A stretch of 64,000 nucleotides of DNA. Source: Paraburkholderia largidicola. Its GTDB lineage: Bacteria > Pseudomonadota > Gammaproteobacteria > Burkholderiales > Burkholderiaceae. The position numbers were made by a program, and so were the translations under genes. Positions 20,842 through 63,901 of this stretch are shown here, piece after piece (position 1 is the first letter of the stretch; every line of letters starts with the position of its first letter). The notes under the pieces are model-generated. The model was given only the letters and a program-made list of their open reading frames with translations. It made no database searches and was not told the origin of the DNA. The stretch spans positions 3,695,947 through 3,759,946 of the forward strand of contig NZ_AP023174.1 in the NCBI RefSeq assembly GCF_013426895.1, given 5' to 3'.

Positions 20842-21486
20842 TCAGGCTTGCTGCGCGAAGATCTTCCAGGTCTTTTTCTGCGTGGCGGCGTCGGCCGTTT
20901 CGTGTACCGAGCAGTCCAGGCGCAGATCGGTATCCGACATCGACAGATCGAGCAGCATGCAGCGATGCGGCGTTTTCTTCGGGTTCTTGCTCGGCTCGAA
21001 ATGCGTGCAGGTCACGCACATCCGGTGCGGCGGAATGTGGCCTTGCACTTCGAGCTGACGCACGGTCTTCAGCAACGTGCGATAGAAGATCGATTGCTCT
21101 TCGTCGCGCAGCGTGCCGACCGCCTTCGCGAGGAAGTCGGGCCATTGCGCGGCGCGCTTGGCCGCAGTGCGGCCGCGAGCCGTCAGACGCACGGCCAGCG
21201 CGCGCCCGTCGTCGAGCGCGCGGCGCTTTTCGACGAGACCCTTGCTTTCCAGCGTGCTCACGGCATCGCTGGTGGTCGCGGCCGTCAACGCCGTTTCGCG
21301 TGCGATTTCGCCGAGCCGCATCGGCCCCTTGCGCTGCATCAGCAGCACGAGGATTTCGCCCTGGGTAGGCGTCAGACCCGCGCCTTCCGCCCATTCCCAT
21401 GCCTGGCTCCGCATGGCCGTGCTGAGTCGCAGCAGGCTGTGGGTCACCCGCCCGGTTGCCTGCTCTCCGTATACGCCTTCGCTCAT
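20842..21486 (-). CDS. MarR-family regulator with a C-terminal cysteine cluster
   Basis: A 214-residue regulator from ATG 21486. Residues about 20-125 are a MarR winged helix domain (LTPTQGEILVLL, then TSDAVSTLESKGLVEKRRAL). The protein is longer than a typical MarR (about 140-150). The extra C-terminal part holds CVTC, then HRCMLLDL and LRLDCSVHE, four cysteines spaced like a metal or redox site. Ligand and targets are unknown. The long spacer upstream (21487-22171) presumably holds its promoter. Confidence 0.85.
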   Translation of the reverse strand: MSEGVYGEQATGRVTHSLLRLSTAMRSQAWEWAEGAGLTPTQGEILVLLMQRKGPMRLGEIARETALTAATTSDAVSTLESKGLVEKRRALDDGRALAVRLTARGRTAAKRAAQWPDFLAKAVGTLRDEEQSIFYRTLLKTVRQLEVQGHIPPHRMCVTCTHFEPSKNPKKTPHRCMLLDLSMSDTDLRLDCSVHETADAATQKKTWKIFAQQA

Positions 21487-21961
21487 AGTCTTTCGTTCGT
21501 TGTTGACAGCGTGCCGTTGCCCGTCGACATCCGATTTCCGATGCCGGCGCGCCGACAGTCTGTGGGGGGAAGCTTCGCCGGTCAATCCGGCTCGCCGATT
21601 CCTACTATCTCAAAAACTTCCTGCGATGCGGGCCTTGTCCCGGCCGCTTACTCAGGCTTTGCAAATGTTCATGCAGTGCGACTGCTGCAATCTGGGCCAC
21701 GCATCGACGTGATCCTGGCAGGCCGCAACGACGAAAAACGACATTCTATGCGAGAGCGGCAAATCGTACAGCTAAGTTATCCAATGCAATCTGTGGATAA
21801 CCACGGGATAAGACGGGGGACGACATGTGCGTCGATTCTTGATAACTCCCTCGACCCCAGCAGCGATGAGAATCGTTCTCCCAGGTTTACGGCCGGGATG
21901 CACGCCCGATCCGCGTGGTTATAGTTTACGCAGCCTCTTGAGTTTGCAGGGAATTATTTGG

Positions 21962-22017
21962 TTGTCCACAGGCAAACGCAATGCTTGTTAACTACTACTA
22001 CGTATGTATACGTAAAC
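21962..22017 (+). repeat. Composite DnaA-box element, left copy
   Basis: It reads TTGTCCACAG, a 13-bp spacer, TTGTTAACTACTACTACGTA, a short TA/CG-rich part, then TAAAC. The same layout with the same 13-bp spacer is found inverted at 25248-25304. The shared core is TTGTTAACTWCTACTACGTA. Confidence 0.7.
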
Positions 22018-22065
22018 TTTGAGAAAAGCTGGAGAGCGTCCTATCGGTCTTCGATAAAAAGAAAA

Positions 22066-22086
22066 AAACCCGCAAAAAGCGGGTTT
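22066..22086 (-). terminator. Rho-independent terminator of the ybdK-type gene
   Basis: Arms AAACCCGC (22066-22073) and GCGGGTTT (22079-22086), loop of five A's. On the minus strand a T-rich run follows. It sits about 85 bp downstream of the ligase stop. Confidence 0.85.
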
Positions 22087-22171
22087 CGTTGAGTCTGCCT
22101 GACGACGAGGCAATGACATGCGACGCGCCAGCCGCGCCGGATTGCATCGTGCGGCCTGTACGCGCCAGCTT

Positions 22172-23287
22172 TTAGGCGCGCCACTGCAGGCACTGCTGCC
22201 GCACCACTTCATGCAGCGATTGTTCCTGTTCGGACACATTGCGCAACCAGGTCGCATCGTTCACCTGCCCACGCGCGATCGCGCCGATTTCTTCGAGCGC
22301 CTTGCCCGAGCCGAGCGCATCCGCATGCGGCGCGATGCGCTCGAGCGTGTGAATGATGTCTTCGGAGATCGTACGGCGCTCACCCGTCTGAGGATCGATA
22401 CACGTGCCCGCCAGACCGAAACGGCAGGCCTCGAAACGGTTGAACGTGTAGACGAGATAGTCGTCTTCCTTTGGCATCAAAGGCTTGTCGAGCAGCAGAT
22501 GACGCGCGAGCGTCTGGATGTAGCAGGCAATTGCGGCCGCGCGATCGACGGAAAGCGGCGTGTCCATCACGCGCACTTCGATGGTGCCGAAGCCGGGCTT
22601 CGGCCGGATATCCCAGTAGAAGTCCTTCATGCTGTTGACGACGCCCGTGTGCACCATCTTCGAAAAGTACTCTTCGAAGCTGTCCCACGTGAGGACGAAC
22701 GGTGCGCGGCCCGACAGCGGGAACGCGAACACGGAATTCAGGCGTGCCGAGTGAAAGCCCGTATCGACGCCCTGCACGAACGGCGACGACGCCGACAGCG
22801 CGATGAAGTGCGGTATGTAGCGCGACATCGAATGCAGCAGGAACAACGCGCTATCGGCATCCGGGCAGCCGATGTGCACGTGCTGGCCGAATACCGTGAA
22901 CTGCTTCGCGAGGTAGCCGTAGAGTTCCGAAAGGTACTGAAAGCGCGGCGTGTCGACGATCTTCCGCTCGCTCCATTGCTGGAAAGCGTGCGTGCCGCCG
23001 CCGCACAGGCCGACGTTCAGCCGGTCCGCCGCGGCGACCAGCGTGTCGCGAATGGTGCGCAGATCGGCGACGGCCTGTTCGTGCGTCGTGCAGATGCCCG
23101 TCGACAGCTCGATCATGCTTTCGGTGATTTCCGGCGTGATATTGCCTGGGATCTTTTCGTCCTTGATGAGCCGGAGCAGGTCGGTTCCGGCTTTGGTCAG
23201 ATCATAGTCATGGGTATTGACGATCTGCATCTCGAGTTCGACACCGAAGGTGAACGGTTTCGAATCGACGAAGGCTTCGAGTGACAT
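22172..23287 (-). CDS. YbdK-type carboxylate-amine ligase (glutamate-cysteine ligase family 2)
   Basis: A 371-residue member of the GCS2 family. The N-terminal [12 protein letters not shown] is the family signature, followed by the ATP-grasp-like glutamine-synthetase-fold blocks [21 protein letters not shown] and the late [11 protein letters not shown]. coli YbdK has weak gamma-glutamyl-cysteine ligase activity, so this may ligate glutamate or another acid to an amine. A true gshA is present at 48911-50524, so this paralogue probably has a different substrate. Upstream lies a CPA2 antiporter on the same strand. Confidence 0.9.
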
Positions 23288-23409
23288 AGCGTTTCCTGAT
23301 TCATGTCGGCATCAGCGCCCGATACGGGCGGCGCCGGCTGGATTGACTGTCGAATGCTGCAGCCGAACGCTCGAGCTGCATGAAAAATAGAGGGTGCCGG
23401 CTTTCCGCT

Positions 23410-24612
23410 TTACTCGCGGCGTTCGCCCACCAGCGCGAGCGAGCGGTAGACGAGCCAAGGCCCGACCAGCTGCAACACGACGATCGAGCACATCGTGACC
23501 GCGCGCAGTGTCGGATCGAAATTCGGATAGAGCTGGTAGGTATCGTCGACGAGCAGATACGCGAGCGCCGACATTGGCGACAGCGATAATCCCAGCGCCA
23601 TGCCCTGCTTCATGTCGAGTCCGCTCGGCTTGGCGAACGCGAGCACGCCGACCAGCTTGGCCACCAGCCGCGCGACGATCAGTCCGACGGCGGCCAGGCC
23701 GCCCAGCGCCACGTCGTGCCATTCGAACGTCGTCAGCGTGAGCACGAACAGAATCACCGTCAGCAGCCAACCCGCCGTGCCGAAATGCTCCGGCCAAAGT
23801 TGCGGGCGCGCTTCCAGATTCTTCACGATGATGCCCGCCGCGAGCAGGCTGAGAATCGTCGACAGTTTGAAGATATGCGCGACGGCAATGGCGAGCAGCA
23901 CGAGGCCGAACAGCGCGACGAACGAGTGCTCGTCCTGCAGATTCACACGCTTGTAAAAGAACGTGATGGTGCGCGCGAGCAGGTACGCGAGGATCAGCGA
24001 GCCGATCAGCAGATACAGCGGCTGAAGAATGGTCGCGAGCACGTTGCCGTAGGCTTCCTGATGCAGCCAGCCGGACGCGAGCTTCTCGACGATCACCGCA
24101 TACATGCTGTTGAGCGCCGTCAGCGTCAGCAGGCGCTGCGTGACCTGGCCTTCGGCGCGCACCTCGGTTTTCAGCTGGATGACCATCGCGGGTGAAGTCG
24201 CCATCGCGATCGACGCAAGCACGAGCGCCGTCACCGACGACACGTTCAGAAACAGCAGCACCAGCAGCACGAGCACGAACGTGAGCGTCGATTCGGCGAT
24301 GCTCGACACGATCAGCCACGTATTGCGGCGAATCCAGCGCAGATCCAGCCGGCTGCCGAGCTCGAACAGCAGCAGGCCGAGCGCGACATCGAGCAACGGG
24401 CGCGCGGTGCTTGCCGAGTCCGCGTCGATCACGCCAGAACCCGCCGAGCCCGCGATCAGCCCGATCACGGCATAGCCGGAAATGCGCGGCAGATGCCACG
24501 CGCGATAGCACAGCTCGCCGACGAGGCCTGCGGCGAGCAAAGCGAGGCCTGCCCAGAAAATGGCATCGGGCGTGAGCGGCCAGCCTGGAAAGAATGAAAA
24601 CGCCGACTTCAT
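23410..24612 (-). CDS. CPA2-family cation:proton antiporter (KefB-like membrane domain)
   Basis: A 400-residue inner-membrane antiporter with about 11-13 predicted helices. The motif LALGLLLFELGSRLDLRWIRR near residue 70 and TSPAMVIQLKTEVRAEGQVT match the Na+/H+ exchanger domain of CPA2 (KefB/RosB) proteins. The TrkA-N regulatory domain of full-length KefB/KefC is absent, so this is a membrane-domain-only form. It starts at ATG 24612 with AAGGAGAAG. The neighbouring glutathione-ligase-like gene is suggestive, since Kef systems are gated by glutathione adducts, but this is inference. Confidence 0.87.
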   Translation of the reverse strand: MKSAFSFFPGWPLTPDAIFWAGLALLAAGLVGELCYRAWHLPRISGYAVIGLIAGSAGSGVIDADSASTARPLLDVALGLLLFELGSRLDLRWIRRNTWLIVSSIAESTLTFVLVLLVLLFLNVSSVTALVLASIAMATSPAMVIQLKTEVRAEGQVTQRLLTLTALNSMYAVIVEKLASGWLHQEAYGNVLATILQPLYLLIGSLILAYLLARTITFFYKRVNLQDEHSFVALFGLVLLAIAVAHIFKLSTILSLLAAGIIVKNLEARPQLWPEHFGTAGWLLTVILFVLTLTTFEWHDVALGGLAAVGLIVARLVAKLVGVLAFAKPSGLDMKQGMALGLSLSPMSALAYLLVDDTYQLYPNFDPTLRAVTMCSIVVLQLVGPWLVYRSLALVGERRE

Positions 24613-25247
24613 CGTGGTGGCTTCTCCTTGGCAGCAACACCCGGCAACGCGAACGGGCAGACGACGTCGGCACGCAAAGCGCGCGCCGCGTCCGTTGCCG
24701 CGATCGGTTCGCGTCTGCCGGCGTTGCGGGTTGTCAACGATCGGGTGAAAAACTGAAACGACCACGCCGATGCCGCATGACTACGGGCAGCCCGACGTGA
24801 GTGAAAAGAGCGCCGTCGACTTTTGAATCAGATTCTGTGGGTCCGGCAACCGTTCCATTTGGCGCGTCGGTTGCGGGGGCAAAACGCGACGCGGAAGAAC
24901 GGCGATTGTGCCATAGCTTTTTTACACTTGACGGAAAAGCGTCGAACGAGCGCTCAAAGCGGTAAAACGTACGCTAACTTCAGGGCAACAGGAAAAAGCG
25001 ACCGGAAAATGCGTGTGCTTTGGGGAAGATCGGCCTTATCAGTCGCGCATTTGCAAGTCTGAGAGGGACCTCGCGCAACGCATGTTCACCGTGCTTGCGT
25101 TTGAGTGCCGTTCCGCTCAGGCGTTCCGGCTTCTCAACGATGAACAGCAAACAAGACGGTCCGTGAAGCGAAGCGGGTATTGCGAAATTCTTAATAGGAA
25201 AGAGGATGCCGCCGGAGGCCGACCCACTGAGGGCTCTTCATCAATAG

Positions 25248-25304
25248 GTTTACTGTACGTATACGTAGTAGAAGTTAACAAGGCCGCTGCATTTCTGTGG
25301 ATAA
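25248..25304 (-). repeat. Composite DnaA-box element, right copy (inverted)
   Basis: Read on the minus strand: TTATCCACAG (a perfect DnaA box), a 13-bp spacer, TTGTTAACTTCTACTACGTA, a short TA/CG-rich part, then GTAAAC. It matches the element at 21962-22017 in order and spacing, in opposite orientation about 3.3 kb away. Confidence 0.7.
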
Positions 25305-25475
25305 CCCGGGTTTACCGAAGCGAATCAGCGTCTTGCCGAACGCATAACCGGATGCACTTGATGTGCGCGCCCGGCTGGGTTCGATGAATAACTTTTGGCC
25401 AAAGTTTACGTCCGGCGAGTTACCCCGTTTACGTCCACATCCGATCCACACGAGTTTCGCCCGCATTTTTCCCGG

Positions 25476-25509
25476 TTATCCACAACGCGCCGTGGATAAC
25501 TTTTCCACA
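25476..25509. promoter_or_regulatory. Cluster of three DnaA-type boxes
   Basis: A perfect TTATCCACA at 25476-25484 is followed by CGTGGATAA (25491-25499, inverted, one mismatch) and TTTTCCACA (25501-25509, one mismatch) within 34 bp. Tight pairs of opposed boxes are typical of DnaA binding regions. Whether it is an origin, a titration site or a promoter control region is unresolved. Confidence 0.6.
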
Positions 25510-30210: not shown

Positions 30211-30723
30211 CGGTCAAGATGACGAACTATGTTCGATTCCTAGGCAAGAGACGGTAAAGACGACTTGACACCTATATCCGGCGGGCGCGAACTCGGGAAA
30301 ACCCGTTACCTTCGGGATACTCCAACCATCATTCCGCCCGTATCATACCGGCTGGACATGACGCGTTAAAGTTGGCCAGCCGACATAAGCGAGTAACTTG
30401 CGGCCAAAGGCGGGCAGAAATACGCACCGGTCCGGAACGCAAAACTTTCAAGAACGTAACAGATTGCGCAATCCGCGCGGCGTTGGATCGCAAACGTTAG
30501 AGGAATCGTACGGAACTCCCCGGTTCTGTGACATTTCCGACATGAAAAGCTGTTACTGTTCGTTGTTTTTGATTACAGGGAGGCAAGGCATCCTTGGCAC
30601 TGGCTGCCACGGAAGCGTTTTGCCGGACTGGGGACGACCAGGTGTCGGCCGGTCGTCCACTGTGCATGACCGTCGGCGGATCACAACGTCGGCTTCGAAA
30701 CCACATCCATGAGAAGAAATCGT
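30211..30723. other. Divergent promoter region between the transglycosylase gene and gspD
   Basis: This 513-bp spacer must hold the promoters for both directions, including that of the 12-kb gsp operon. I see TTGACA-like and TGACAT-like hexamers (near 30265 and 30530) but no certain -10 boxes, and no gene. Confidence 0.5.
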
Positions 30724-33081
30724 ATGGCATTGCGTCGCGTCGCGACAGCGTTGCTGGTCGCTGGCATGATCACCGCGCAGATCGCCCACGCTCAGGTGAC
30801 GCTCAACTTCGTCAACGCCGACATCGATCAGGTGGCGAGGGCGATCGGCGCGGCGACGGGTAAAACGATCATCGTCGACCCGCGCGTGAAAGGGCAATTG
30901 AACCTGGTGTCCGAGAATCCCGTTCCGGAAGACCAGGCGCTGAAGACCTTGCAGTCCGCCTTGAGAATGCAGGGCTTTTCGCTGGTGCAGGACCATGGCG
31001 TCCTGAAGGTCGTGCCCGAAGCCGATGCGAAACTGCAAGGCGTGCCGACCTATGTCGGCAACGCGCCCGCGGCGCGCGGCGATCAGGTGATCACGCAGGT
31101 ATTCCAGCTGCGGAACGAGTCGGCCAACAACCTCTTGCCCGTATTGCGTCCGCTGATCTCGCCGAACAATACAGTCGCGGCCTATCCGTCGAACAACACG
31201 ATCGTCGTTACCGACTACGCGGATAACGTGCGGCGTATCGCGCAGATCATCCAGGGCATCGACACGGCAGCGGGCCAGCAGGTGCAGGTCGTGCCGTTGA
31301 AGAACGCGAATGCGATCGACGTCGCGCAACAGATGTCGAAGATGCTCGACCCCGGCTCGATCGGCAACACCGATGCGACCTTGAAGGTTTCCGTCCAGGC
31401 CGACCCGCGCACCAACTCGCTGCTGCTGCGTGCGTCGAACGCGGGGCGTCTCGCGGCGGCGAAGTCGCTCGCGAAGCAGCTGGATGCGGCAACCGCCCAG
31501 CCCGGCAACATGCACGTCGTGTCGCTGCGCAACGCGGACGCCGTGCGTCTCGCGAAAACGCTGCGCGGCATGCTCGGCAAGGGCGGCGGCGGTGGCAACG
31601 ATTCTTCGTCGTCGGGCGGCAACAATGCGGCGAATTCGTTCAACCAGAACAATTCGCCCTCGTCGACGGGCAGCTCGGGCACGCCGCCTCTGCCGTCGGG
31701 ATCGATGGGCGGTTCGTCGGGGTCGTCGCTGGGAAGCAATCCGCTGGGCGCCGGTGGCGCCGGCGGTGGCTATGGCGGTCAGGGCGGCAACAACTCGGAC
31801 TTTCTCGGCGAGAAGGAAGGCAGCGGCGGCGACGACAATCAGCCTGGCGGCATGATCCAGGCCGACGCGTCGACGAATTCACTGATCATCACCGCGTCCG
31901 ATCCCGTCTACCGCAATCTGCGCACGGTGATCGACCAGCTCGACGTGCGCCGCCCGCAGGTCTACATCGAAGCGCTGATCGTCGAGCTGAACTCGAACAC
32001 GAACGCGAACCTGGGTATCCAGTGGCAGATCGGCAGCGGCAACCTGCTCGCGGGTACCAACCTTGCCACGGGCGGCGGCAACAGCATCGTCAACCTGACG
32101 GCGGCAGCAGCAGCCAATGCCACCACGGGTGGCCTGGCTTCCGCGCTTGCCGCGCAGAATCTCCAGCAGGGTCTGAATGTAGGCTGGTTGCACAACCTCT
32201 TCGGTGTGCAGGGGCTCGGCGCGTTGCTGCAGGCGCTGTCGCAGACGAGCGACGCCAACGTGCTGTCCACGCCTAACCTGATCACGCTCGACAATCAGGA
32301 AGCGAAGATCGTCGTGGGTACCAACGTGCCGATCCAGACGGGCTCGTATTCGAACCTCACGAGCAGCACGGCGACCAACGCGTTCAACACGTTCGACCGT
32401 ATCGACGTCGGTCTGACGCTGCACATCAAGCCGCAGATCACCGAAGGCGGCATCCTGAAACTGCAGCTGTATACGGAAGACTCGGCGATCGTGGCAGGCA
32501 CCACCAATGTGGCGACCAATCCCGCTGGGCCCGAGTTCACGAAGCGCTCGATCCAGTCGACCGTGCTTGCCGACAACGGCGAGATCATCGTGCTGGGCGG
32601 CCTGATGCAGGACAATTATCAGGTCAATAACAGCAAGGTGCCGCTGCTTGGCGACATCCCGTGGATCGGCCAGTTGTTCCGCTCGGAAAACAAGATTCGC
32701 GCGAAGACCAACCTGCTGGTCTTCCTGCGTCCGGTGATCATCAACGACCGCGACACGGCGCAAGCGGTGACGGCGAACCGCTACGATTACATCCAGGGCG
32801 TGACGGGCGCATACAAGTCCGATAACAACCTGATCAAGGACAAGGACGATCCCGTCGTGCCGCCGATGCCGGTTGGCCCGAGCCAGGGCGGATCGACGTT
32901 GAACCTGTTCGATCTCGACGCGATGCGGCGTCAACAGGCGCTTGGCGTGCCCGTCCCGGCCCCCGCGTACGTTCCGCCGCAGCAACCTCAACCGCAAATG
33001 CAACCGCAGATGCAGGCCCAGCCGCCCGTACAAACGGTCCCGGCGCAACCGGCCACGAGCGCGCCGAAGGTGCAGCCGTGA
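30724..33081 (+). CDS. gspD: Type II secretion secretin GspD
   Basis: The outer-membrane secretin channel of the type II secretion system, about 785 residues. A signal peptide ends near AHA before QVTLNFVNADI. N0 and N1-N3 domains run to about 400. They are interrupted by a roughly 90-residue Gly/Ser/Asn-rich linker between N2 and N3. The secretin core contains VLSTPNLITLDNQEAKIVVG and VPLLGDIPWIGQLFRS. The C-terminal tail is Pro/Gln-rich, without a clear pilotin S-domain. ATG 30724 is preferred because AGAAG precedes it; an ATG five codons earlier is possible. gspE overlaps its stop. Confidence 0.95.
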   Translation: MALRRVATALLVAGMITAQIAHAQVTLNFVNADIDQVARAIGAATGKTIIVDPRVKGQLNLVSENPVPEDQALKTLQSALRMQGFSLVQDHGVLKVVPEADAKLQGVPTYVGNAPAARGDQVITQVFQLRNESANNLLPVLRPLISPNNTVAAYPSNNTIVVTDYADNVRRIAQIIQGIDTAAGQQVQVVPLKNANAIDVAQQMSKMLDPGSIGNTDATLKVSVQADPRTNSLLLRASNAGRLAAAKSLAKQLDAATAQPGNMHVVSLRNADAVRLAKTLRGMLGKGGGGGNDSSSSGGNNAANSFNQNNSPSSTGSSGTPPLPSGSMGGSSGSSLGSNPLGAGGAGGGYGGQGGNNSDFLGEKEGSGGDDNQPGGMIQADASTNSLIITASDPVYRNLRTVIDQLDVRRPQVYIEALIVELNSNTNANLGIQWQIGSGNLLAGTNLATGGGNSIVNLTAAAAANATTGGLASALAAQNLQQGLNVGWLHNLFGVQGLGALLQALSQTSDANVLSTPNLITLDNQEAKIVVGTNVPIQTGSYSNLTSSTATNAFNTFDRIDVGLTLHIKPQITEGGILKLQLYTEDSAIVAGTTNVATNPAGPEFTKRSIQSTVLADNGEIIVLGGLMQDNYQVNNSKVPLLGDIPWIGQLFRSENKIRAKTNLLVFLRPVIINDRDTAQAVTANRYDYIQGVTGAYKSDNNLIKDKDDPVVPPMPVGPSQGGSTLNLFDLDAMRRQQALGVPVPAPAYVPPQQPQPQMQPQMQAQPPVQTVPAQPATSAPKVQP

Positions 33082-34595
33082 GCACGCCGCATGTGCCCGG
33101 CAGCGCGCCGCTCGATTCAGCGGCCACGGGCGGAACGCATCGCGAGCCGCCCTCTGCGCTAGCCGCGCGACTCGTGCCGTATGGCTTCGCGAGAAGCGGC
33201 CAGATTCTGGTCGCGCATCAACACGCCGATTCGATGGAAGTCTGGATCAGCGAACGCACGACCCAGGCCGCGCTCGCAGAAGTCGCGCGCAATTTTGGCG
33301 CGGTGTCGGTTGTGCGGCTCGAAGCGGATGAGCTCTCGCAGGCGATCAATCAGGCCTATTCGCGCCAGGACGGCAGCGCTGCGCAGGTGGTTGGTGAAGT
33401 GGAAGGCGAAGTCGATCTGTCGCGTCTGATGCAGGACATTCCCGAAGTGGAAGACCTGCTGGAATCCGAAGACGACGCGCCGATCATCCGCATGATCAAC
33501 GCGCTGCTTACGCAAGCTGCGCGCGAACAGGCATCGGATATTCACATCGAGCCATTCGAGAATGCCTCCGTGGTGCGCTTTCGCGTCGACGGTACGCTGC
33601 GCGACGTGGTGCGTCCGAAGAAAGCGCTGCACGGCGCACTGATTTCCCGGATCAAGATCATGGCGCAGCTCGACATCGCCGAGAAGCGTCTGCCGCAGGA
33701 TGGCCGCATTACGTTGCGTGTCGGTGGAAGACCTGTCGACGTGCGTGTCTCGACCTTGCCGACAGGCCACGGCGAACGCGCCGTGCTGCGTCTGCTCGAA
33801 AAAGACGCACAGCGTTTGAACCTCGAAGCGCTCGGCATGGCGTCCGATACGCTCGGCCAGTTCGACAAGCTGATTTCGCGTCCACACGGCATCGTGCTCG
33901 TCACGGGCCCGACGGGCTCGGGCAAGACGACCACGCTGTATGCGTCGATGTCGCGGCTCGAAACGGCGACGACGAACATCATGACCGTCGAAGACCCGAT
34001 CGAATACGACCTTTCCGGCATTGGCCAGACGCAGGTCAACGAGCGGATCGGCATGACGTTCGCCCGCGCGTTGCGGTCCATTCTGCGTCAGGACCCCGAC
34101 GTCATCATGATCGGTGAAATCCGCGATCTCGAAACGGCGCAGATCGCCGTGCAGGCGTCGCTGACGGGCCACCTCGTGCTCGCCACATTGCACACCAACG
34201 ACGCCGCCTCCGCCGTCACGCGTCTTACCGACATGGGCGTCGAGCCGTATCTGCTCGCGTCATCGCTGCTTGGCGTGCTGGCGCAGCGTCTCGTGCGGCG
34301 TCTGTGTCCCGTGTGCAAGGTCGAGCGCGAAGAAGCAGACGGGCGCAAGCTCTGGCATCCCGTCGGCTGCGACAAGTGCGGACATTCCGGCTATGCGGGA
34401 CGGCGCGGCGTGTACGAACTGTTGAACGTCGACGAATCGATCCGCTCGCTGATTCACCGCAACGCCTCCGACGCCGAGATTCTCGAAACCGGCCGCAAGC
34501 AAGGCATGCGCACGTTGCGCGAGGACGGCGACCGCTGGCTCGCATCGGGCCTGACGTCGCTCGAAGAAGTGATACGCGTGACGGGCGGGGTCTAA
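33078..34595 (+). CDS. gspE: Type II secretion ATPase GspE
   Basis: A 505-residue cytoplasmic hexameric ATPase that powers pseudopilus growth. An N-terminal domain (1-130) contacts GspL. The core has Walker A GPTGSGKT at about 275, the Asp box, Walker B (DPDVIMIGEIRD) and the His box. A tetracysteine zinc motif (CPVCKVE then GCDKCGHSG) lies near 410-435. The GTG start at 33078 overlaps the gspD stop by four bases, so translation is coupled. Confidence 0.96.
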   Translation: MSTPHVPGSAPLDSAATGGTHREPPSALAARLVPYGFARSGQILVAHQHADSMEVWISERTTQAALAEVARNFGAVSVVRLEADELSQAINQAYSRQDGSAAQVVGEVEGEVDLSRLMQDIPEVEDLLESEDDAPIIRMINALLTQAAREQASDIHIEPFENASVVRFRVDGTLRDVVRPKKALHGALISRIKIMAQLDIAEKRLPQDGRITLRVGGRPVDVRVSTLPTGHGERAVLRLLEKDAQRLNLEALGMASDTLGQFDKLISRPHGIVLVTGPTGSGKTTTLYASMSRLETATTNIMTVEDPIEYDLSGIGQTQVNERIGMTFARALRSILRQDPDVIMIGEIRDLETAQIAVQASLTGHLVLATLHTNDAASAVTRLTDMGVEPYLLASSLLGVLAQRLVRRLCPVCKVEREEADGRKLWHPVGCDKCGHSGYAGRRGVYELLNVDESIRSLIHRNASDAEILETGRKQGMRTLREDGDRWLASGLTSLEEVIRVTGGV

Positions 34596-63851: not shown

Positions 63852-63901
63852 GATCCACAGGCAGGCCCTCTCGCCGTTGTTTGATCGGACCCTGTGGATA
63901 A
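63852..63901. promoter_or_regulatory. DnaA-type boxes beside rpmH (origin-proximal side)
   Basis: A perfect TGTGGATAA (63893-63901) and a partial GATCCACA (63852-63859) lie in the 282-bp spacer 63719-64000, which has no gene up to the edge. In related genomes dnaA follows here, so the spacer may be part of the origin or of the dnaA control region. The downstream half is outside the window. Confidence 0.5.

What the first reader, a model, noticed from the sequence alone, without database searches (positions are those of the whole stretch)
21962..25304. Paired inverted composite elements: DnaA box, 13-bp spacer, conserved 33-34-bp motif
Two non-coding regions 3.3 kb apart carry the same element in opposite orientation (21962-22017 plus strand; 25248-25304 minus strand). 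Each reads TTRTCCACAG, exactly 13 bp of unconserved spacer, TTGTTAACTWCTACTACGTA, then a TA/CG-rich tail ending TAAAC. Conserved order and spacing with an unconserved spacer suggest a protein-binding architecture rather than a recent duplication. They bracket the ybdK ligase and the antiporter gene. The elements could be part of an origin, a DnaA titration or timing site, or a paired regulatory device.
Basis: partly seen in the sequence, partly recalled or inferred. Interest (0 to 1): 0.75.

Follow-up and report, generated by a model that had tools for sequence, protein, structure and literature searches.

The report
Twin replication-origin modules in Burkholderiaceae
The two matching DNA elements are very probably part of the start site of chromosome copying in this bacterium, built as two facing copies of a DNA-opening module about 40 kb away from the initiator gene dnaA, with further copies elsewhere in the same region.

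Summary
Each element is part of a larger module: distal DnaA box, proximal DnaA box 162-172 bp away, 14 bp, TTGTTAACT, three DnaA-trio-like triplets, and an alternating pyrimidine-purine tail with GTWWAC methylation motifs. Over 484 kb of the main chromosome, cumulative GC skew is lowest between the two elements; dnaA is about 40 kb away. In six of six genomes examined (200-484 kb each, not whole chromosomes) the minimum lies within 2.7 kb of an element, weakly in G011; one genome is of another family, with dnaA 392 kb away. Of 20 loci from 11 genera, 19 of them picked because they carry element A, 12 have the inverted pair, 2 have two direct copies, 5 have A only, 1 has none. The genome holds two more copies, 53 and 240 kb from A; 97 of 97 genus genomes searched (own included) have 1-5. 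Best reading: the DnaA-dependent oriC of chromosome 1, with A the stronger module and B its often degenerate partner (trios intact in 7 of 12). Published work left this origin's exact position open. The trios start 21 bp from the box, beyond the 16-bp limit of the published BUS search rule: BUS-like, not a formal member. No experiment was done.

The parts
21962..22017 (+). Element B: DnaA box TTGTCCACA(G) 21962-21971, 13-bp spacer, TTGTTAACT 21985-21993, trios CTA CTA CTA 21992-22000, GTWWAC motifs 21987-21992, 22006-22011, 22012-22017
21792..21800 (-). Distal inverted DnaA box of module B, 162 bp 5'-to-5' from the proximal box
25248..25304 (-). Element A: DnaA box TTATCCACA(G) 25295-25304, spacer, TTGTTAACT 25273-25281, trios CTT CTA CTA 25266-25274, GTWWAC motifs 25274-25279, 25259-25264, 25248-25253
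25323..25335 (+). IHF-like site (1 mismatch) between proximal and distal boxes of module A
   Evidence: the offset -31 recurs with at most 1 mismatch in 112 of 224 modules, exact matches in the -40 to -15 stretch in only 9 of 224
25476..25484 (+). Distal inverted DnaA box of module A, 172 bp 5'-to-5' from the proximal box
25491..25509 (.). Two further DnaA boxes of module A: TTATCCACG 25491-25499 (-), TTTTCCACA 25501-25509 (+)
22322..22322 (.). Minimum of cumulative GC skew over the 484 kb examined (C1:3718268), inside ybdK, between the elements
   Evidence: bootstrap
22172..23287 (-). YbdK family carboxylate-amine ligase, inside the inverted pair
23410..24612 (-). Na/H-exchanger family antiporter, inside the inverted pair
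   Evidence: PF00999
25519..27507 (-). MnmC, flank of module A
20842..21486 (-). MarR family regulator, flank of module B
   Evidence: found at 19 of 20 loci

Best explanation
The pair is the DnaA-dependent origin (oriC) of the main chromosome, carrying two facing unwinding modules. In each, DnaA bound at the proximal box is helped by DnaA from a distal box roughly 15 helical turns away, brought in by a DNA loop (perhaps bent by IHF). DnaA then loads onto the single strand at the three trios next to TTGTTAACT and opens the alternating pyrimidine-purine tail. The trios of A and B point inward, toward each other across YbdK and the antiporter. A is the stronger and more constant module; B is a weaker partner that has decayed or been lost in several relatives. 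CACAG and GTWWAC methylation sites in box, core and tail probably mark newly replicated copies. Shown here: anatomy, fixed spacing, synteny, regional GC-skew minimum. Inferred: DnaA loading, looping, opening, joint use of both modules, methylation role.
For: GC-skew minimum inside the pair in G000, G220 and G232, 254 bp outside it in G258, 2.6 kb from A in G011 (B of G232 placed); bootstrap intervals exclude dnaA in G000, G220, G232 and G258 (dnaA places; bootstrap). In G508, of another family, the minimum of 320 kb is 1.5 kb from the element, dnaA is 392 kb away, and the element is the only place with 3 or more boxes per 300 bp in the 400 kb examined. parS 25-31 kb from the pair in five of five family genomes. 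Synteny across genera. DnaA box with at most 1 mismatch at the fixed offset in 40 of 40 sites fetched without a box requirement. A further box upstream in all but 7 of 225 modules; inverted ones pile up at 160-162 bp (56 boxes) and 171-173 bp (120 boxes), about one helical turn apart; about 0.02 boxes expected. In-frame NTN x3 in 213 of 224. In B. subtilis a distal box works with helical phasing (PMC6669920, section 6). B. cenocepacia read-depth gradients start bidirectionally in its predicted c1 origin region (PMC4948915, section 6), though in 10-kb bins.
Against: No experiment. Only 200-484 kb per genome was examined, mostly centred on the elements, so a global minimum is not proven. In G000 the keto-skew minimum lies 12 kb from the GC-skew minimum. 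At 10-kb width the local skew switch does not single out the pair (G000 78th percentile; dnaA scores higher in G220 and G258), and in G011 a second element outscores A. The G011 bootstrap runs 29-91 kb. In G508 the one parS found is 102 kb away. Trios start 21 bp from the box, over the 16-bp BUS limit (PMC8287927). The two distal-box distances could reflect one old 11-bp indel; the modules are not independent, and most were fetched with the trio pattern. B trios are intact in only 7 of 12 loci.
Confidence: 0.82

Rival explanations
1. Origin, but only module A opens; B and the satellites are accessory DnaA and methylation sites that tune timing.
For: In-frame trios at 18 of 19 A loci but 7 of 12 B elements; exact TTATCCACA at 16 of 19 A loci but 3 of 12 B elements. 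At some loci without element B its boxes remain (G063, G237).
Against: In 8 genera B keeps TTGTTAAC, fixed spacing and a distal box. Genera g16 and g7, without B, carry two direct modules at A, as if a second module were favoured.
Confidence: 0.48
2. DnaA titration or timing loci (datA-like) or DnaA-controlled promoters of the antiporter and MarR, with the real origin elsewhere.
For: Copies lie beside gene starts; satellites 51-376 kb from A resemble the placement of titration sites (the datA comparison is recalled).
Against: Regional GC-skew minimum at the pair and not at dnaA; only one canonical box beside dnaA in this genome; trios and looping geometry are not needed for titration.
Confidence: 0.08
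3. A methylation-reader site: the conserved core is mainly a GTWWAC/CACAG cluster and the trio resemblance is incidental.
For: CACAG overlaps the box in 215 of 218, GTTAAC present in 217 of 218 (GTTAAC is part of the search pattern); within 484 kb the only 60-bp windows with 3 or more GTWWAC are at the four elements.
Against: Three f5 relatives keep box-14 bp-TTATTAAC-trios without GTWWAC in the core, near the skew minimum in the one examined, G508.
Confidence: 0.05

Closest known systems
Bacillus subtilis incC basal unwinding system (BUS), PMC6669920, PMC8287927
   Same: DnaA box next to DnaA-trios; a distal box acting through a phased loop
   Different: 21 bp from box to first trio instead of at most 16; nearly invariant TTGTTAAC; modules come as a facing pair; not beside dnaA
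E. coli oriC left half (R1-DUE, IHF site, Dam sites)
   Same: R1-type box, 14 bp, then a TAATAAG AT cluster (recalled, then found in 4792 of 5426 E. coli genomes); IHF site beside R1 and methylation sites in the opening region (both recalled)
   Different: Single copy there; GATC and SeqA instead of GTWWAC; SeqA was found in 0 of 21 genomes
Bipartite origin of Helicobacter pylori (PMC8235120, passages)
   Same: Two DnaA-binding subregions flanking a gene, joined by a loop
   Different: The opening element is in one H. pylori subregion (oriC2); here both carry trios in many loci, facing each other
Putative double origins predicted by Z-curve, e.g. Ralstonia pickettii 12D, 291 kb apart (PMC4403523, passages)
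   Same: More than one origin-like site on one chromosome, in a relative of this group
   Different: Prediction from skew, genes and box counts; no shared module described in the passages I saw
B. cenocepacia oric1 (PMC4948915) and B. pseudomallei predicted origin (PMC12914326)
   Same: Origin region near the GC-skew minimum; DnaA binds a fragment with two inverted boxes
   Different: Exact position called uncertain; no trio, twin-module or satellite structure in the parts I read

Membership tests
Bacterial chromosomal origin (oriC) | Lies at the cumulative GC-skew minimum | tested here: met
   6 of 6 genomes within 2.7 kb, in the 200-484 kb examined per genome, not whole chromosomes; G011 weak
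Bacterial chromosomal origin (oriC) | Cluster of at least 3 DnaA boxes | tested here: met
   Module A: 4 boxes (at most 1 mismatch) in 214 bp; module B alone has 2
Bacterial chromosomal origin (oriC) | DnaA-dependent opening and autonomous replication | not testable with these tools
   needs an experiment
BUS (basal unwinding system) | DnaA box with at most 2 mismatches | tested here: met
   TTGTCCACA and TTATCCACA
BUS (basal unwinding system) | Three or more trios 3'-NAN-5' | tested here: met
   both window copies; 213 of 224 modules
BUS (basal unwinding system) | At most 16 bp between box and first trio (program rule in PMC8287927 section 13) | tested here: not met
   21 bp in both window copies; so BUS-like, not filed as BUS
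Bipartite origin | Two subregions that act together through DnaA looping | tested here: inconclusive
   Inverted pair at 12 of 20 loci, B trios intact in 7 of those 12; joint action not testable
datA-type titration locus | DnaA-box cluster with no role in opening | not testable with these tools
   Satellites carry the core and trios, so they do not look like plain box clusters

The most novel reading that the evidence does not exclude
Burkholderiaceae main chromosomes carry a multi-module origin: two facing unwinding modules, plus origin-proximal satellite modules that can also load DnaA and sometimes fire or compete for it, all under GTWWAC/CACAG methylation control without SeqA.
Probability: 0.2. 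Interest if true: 0.88.

Novelty: new variant of a known kind. Interest (0 to 1): 0.74.

Why it matters
It names, at base resolution, a candidate origin for the main chromosome of Burkholderia, Paraburkholderia, Caballeronia and relatives, whose exact position was described as uncertain for B. cenocepacia (PMC4948915). It offers a natural test of one versus two unwinding modules, since some relatives have lost or degraded one. It suggests a methylation-marked origin in bacteria where SeqA was not found. It warns against assuming that the origin lies beside dnaA in this group. If the satellites are active, the one-origin rule for bacterial chromosomes becomes testable here.

Tried and rejected
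Satellites as frequently used origins: the local GC-skew switch at satellites C and D was not consistent (percentiles 44.6-95.6 in G000, G220, G232, G264); the second element of G011 scored 98.6 and 91.5 at two widths, above element A there. Mobile-element reading: no match in 72,556 plasmid records with one 75-base query from element A; phage records were not searched. RNA element: no Rfam match in 6 kb. Promoter scan: 0 sigma-70-like sites, 1.0 expected. Distribution: strict pattern in 44 of 200 family genomes, 4 of 25 genera; a looser pattern with 1 mismatch in 9 of 300 order genomes while the reversed control hit 3 of 300, so G336 and G557 may be chance; exact variant in 2 of 369 class genomes, own included. 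The parS control is uninformative because the motif is a palindrome.

Errors corrected: some flanking queries were antisense or shadow frames; one search used true frames for MnmC, antiporter and YbdK but a wrong frame for MarR, replaced by the Pfam-confirmed frame.

Full report
OBSERVATION. With two core positions freed, the whole 9.47-Mb genome has four copies, all on contig C1: 3717908(+) and 3721250(-), the window pair, plus 14527(+), called C, and 3481751(-), called D; the reversed-pattern control gives 0. C1 is 3,759,946 bases, dnaA is at its start (665-1147), and the window is its end. I treat C1 as circular, which is inference.

ORIGIN. Cumulative GC skew over the 484 kb examined is lowest at C1:3718268, window 22322, inside the pair; the 5-95% bootstrap interval 3716756-3730175 excludes dnaA. 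The keto-skew minimum lies 12 kb away, near -29.8 kb from the contig end. In 200-kb stretches the GC-skew minimum is inside the pair in G220 (3194264; pair 3191254-3194598) and G232 (244166; A at 243496, B at 247063), 254 bp outside it in G258, and 2.6 kb from A in G011, where the bootstrap is wide. Apart from G000, G011 and G508 these stretches were centred on the pair, so they show a local switch and not a proven global minimum. With a 20-kb window the skew switch at the pair is at the 97th-99th percentile in G000, G220, G232 and G258, and A of G011 at the 84th; with 10 kb the pair does not stand out, and dnaA scores higher than the pair in G220 and G258. dnaA lies 38-45 kb from the pair in G220, G232, G258, G214 and G224 (my subtraction). 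parS sites lie 25-31 kb from the pair in five of five family genomes. In G508, of another family, the variant TTATCCACAG-N13-TTATTAAC lies 1.5 kb from the minimum of a 320-kb stretch and 392 kb from dnaA; it is the only place with 3 or more boxes per 300 bp in the 400 kb examined; the one parS found there is 102 kb away.

ANATOMY. In 218 sites from fetched loci, mostly selected with the pattern, the box sits at one fixed offset. In 40 sites fetched by core alone (of 279 counted, whose listing was cut), 40 of 40 have a box with at most one mismatch at the same offset. The variable core positions fall where trios may vary: in-frame NTN NTN NTN, that is 3'-NAN-5' on the other strand, holds in 213 of 224. 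The tail TACRTATRYATAYR varies mostly within purines or within pyrimidines. Upstream, all but 7 of 225 modules have a further DnaA box: inverted at 160-162 bp (56 boxes) or 171-173 bp (120), direct at 182-185 (49) or 195-196 (88), with 32 inverted and 11 direct boxes at other distances; about 0.02 boxes are expected per module. In B. subtilis a distal box works in either orientation with helical phasing (PMC6669920, section 6). An IHF-like site with at most one mismatch at offset -31 is found in 112 of 224 modules; 117 of 224 have one between -40 and -15 against 1.2% of shuffles, but exact matches there are only 9 of 224.

METHYLATION. CACAG overlaps the box in 215 of 218 and GTTAAC is present in 217 of 218, though GTTAAC is part of the search pattern; within the 484 kb only the four elements have a 60-bp window with 3 or more of the 67 GTWWAC sites. 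B. cenocepacia methylates both motifs and has them in its origins (PMC7364216, passages); the GTWWAC methylase is reported as conserved across Burkholderiaceae (PMC5390034, passages). I did not look for the methylase here. SeqA was found in 0 of 21 genomes while E. coli gave the expected match. A sequestration-like role is inference.

CONSERVATION. The strict pattern is in 44 of 200 family genomes, 22 of 22 of the own genus among them. I fetched 20 loci around MnmC: 19 were picked because earlier calls showed element A there, one because it did not; B was already known for at least G009 and G251. Twelve have the inverted pair, 2.9-4.5 kb apart (8 genera), 2 have two direct copies at A (g16, g7), 5 have A only, 1 has none. 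Trios are intact at 18 of 19 A loci but in 7 of 12 B elements; the exact box TTATCCACA is at 16 of 19 A loci and in 3 of 12 B elements. So A looks like the main opener, and B is decaying in several lineages. MarR is found at 19 of 20 loci. In ten loci of the MnmC search (L227, L234-L239, L242, L245, L246) no box lies near MnmC, so the site is not universal in the family. Of 97 genus genomes, own included, 97 have the core with at most one mismatch: 279 sites; 7 genomes with one, 20 with two, 49 with three, 20 with four, 1 with five; control 0 (counts transcribed). A B-like pattern with up to 3 mismatches is in 58 of 97, some of them not B.

SATELLITES. In eleven genomes with a main contig over 3 Mb, 19 satellites lie 51-376 kb from A (subtraction, assuming circular contigs where needed; one more, in G238, was not computed); G171, G234 and G258 showed none in the list. 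They sit at several different gene neighbourhoods. They carry the same core and mostly the distal box, except class D, where 0 of 8 has one at the usual distance. GC skew gives no consistent sign that they fire.

LITERATURE. Ten searches were made (open PubMed Central papers only). In their listings and the passages I opened I saw no paper describing this element as a DnaA-trio origin of Burkholderiaceae; listings were cut. PMC4948915 (section 6 and passages) leaves the exact c1 origin uncertain and notes a second box cluster near nucleotide 1 and the skew minimum. PMC12914326 (section 17 read) shows DnaA binding to a predicted B. pseudomallei origin fragment. PMC8287927 was read in section 13 and the first part of section 14.

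VERDICT. Very probably oriC of chromosome 1, as a BUS-like origin with one strong and one weaker facing module, plus satellites of unknown role.

Noticed in passing
own genome C1, about 3.38-3.72 Mb; L351-L370: GC skew looks weak just inside satellite D and steeper beyond it in G000, G220, G232 and G264 (read by eye); the change lies about 20 kb past D in two of them. Could be partial origin use or gene content.
   Followed up: partly
L257, L258, L259: Three genomes of a relative family (f5, genus g125) carry box-14 bp-TTATTAACT-trios, with inverted boxes at about 115 and 136 bp; dnaA is 392 kb away in G508.
   Followed up: partly
L142: An Acidobacteriaceae metagenome bin carries the Burkholderiaceae element, probably a misbinned contig.
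   Followed up: no
window 63893-63901: A single canonical DnaA box about 100 bp before the end of the contig that starts with dnaA.
   Followed up: no
window 22065-22087: Terminator-like hairpin with T run after ybdK, 48 bp from element B; such hairpins are at chance level in the region.
   Followed up: no
window 30709-34595: Type II secretion genes gspD and gspE lie about 5 kb from the origin pair.
   Followed up: no
L317 and L319: Genera g16 and g7 have two direct modules about 490 and 370 bp apart at the MnmC site instead of the inverted pair.
   Followed up: partly
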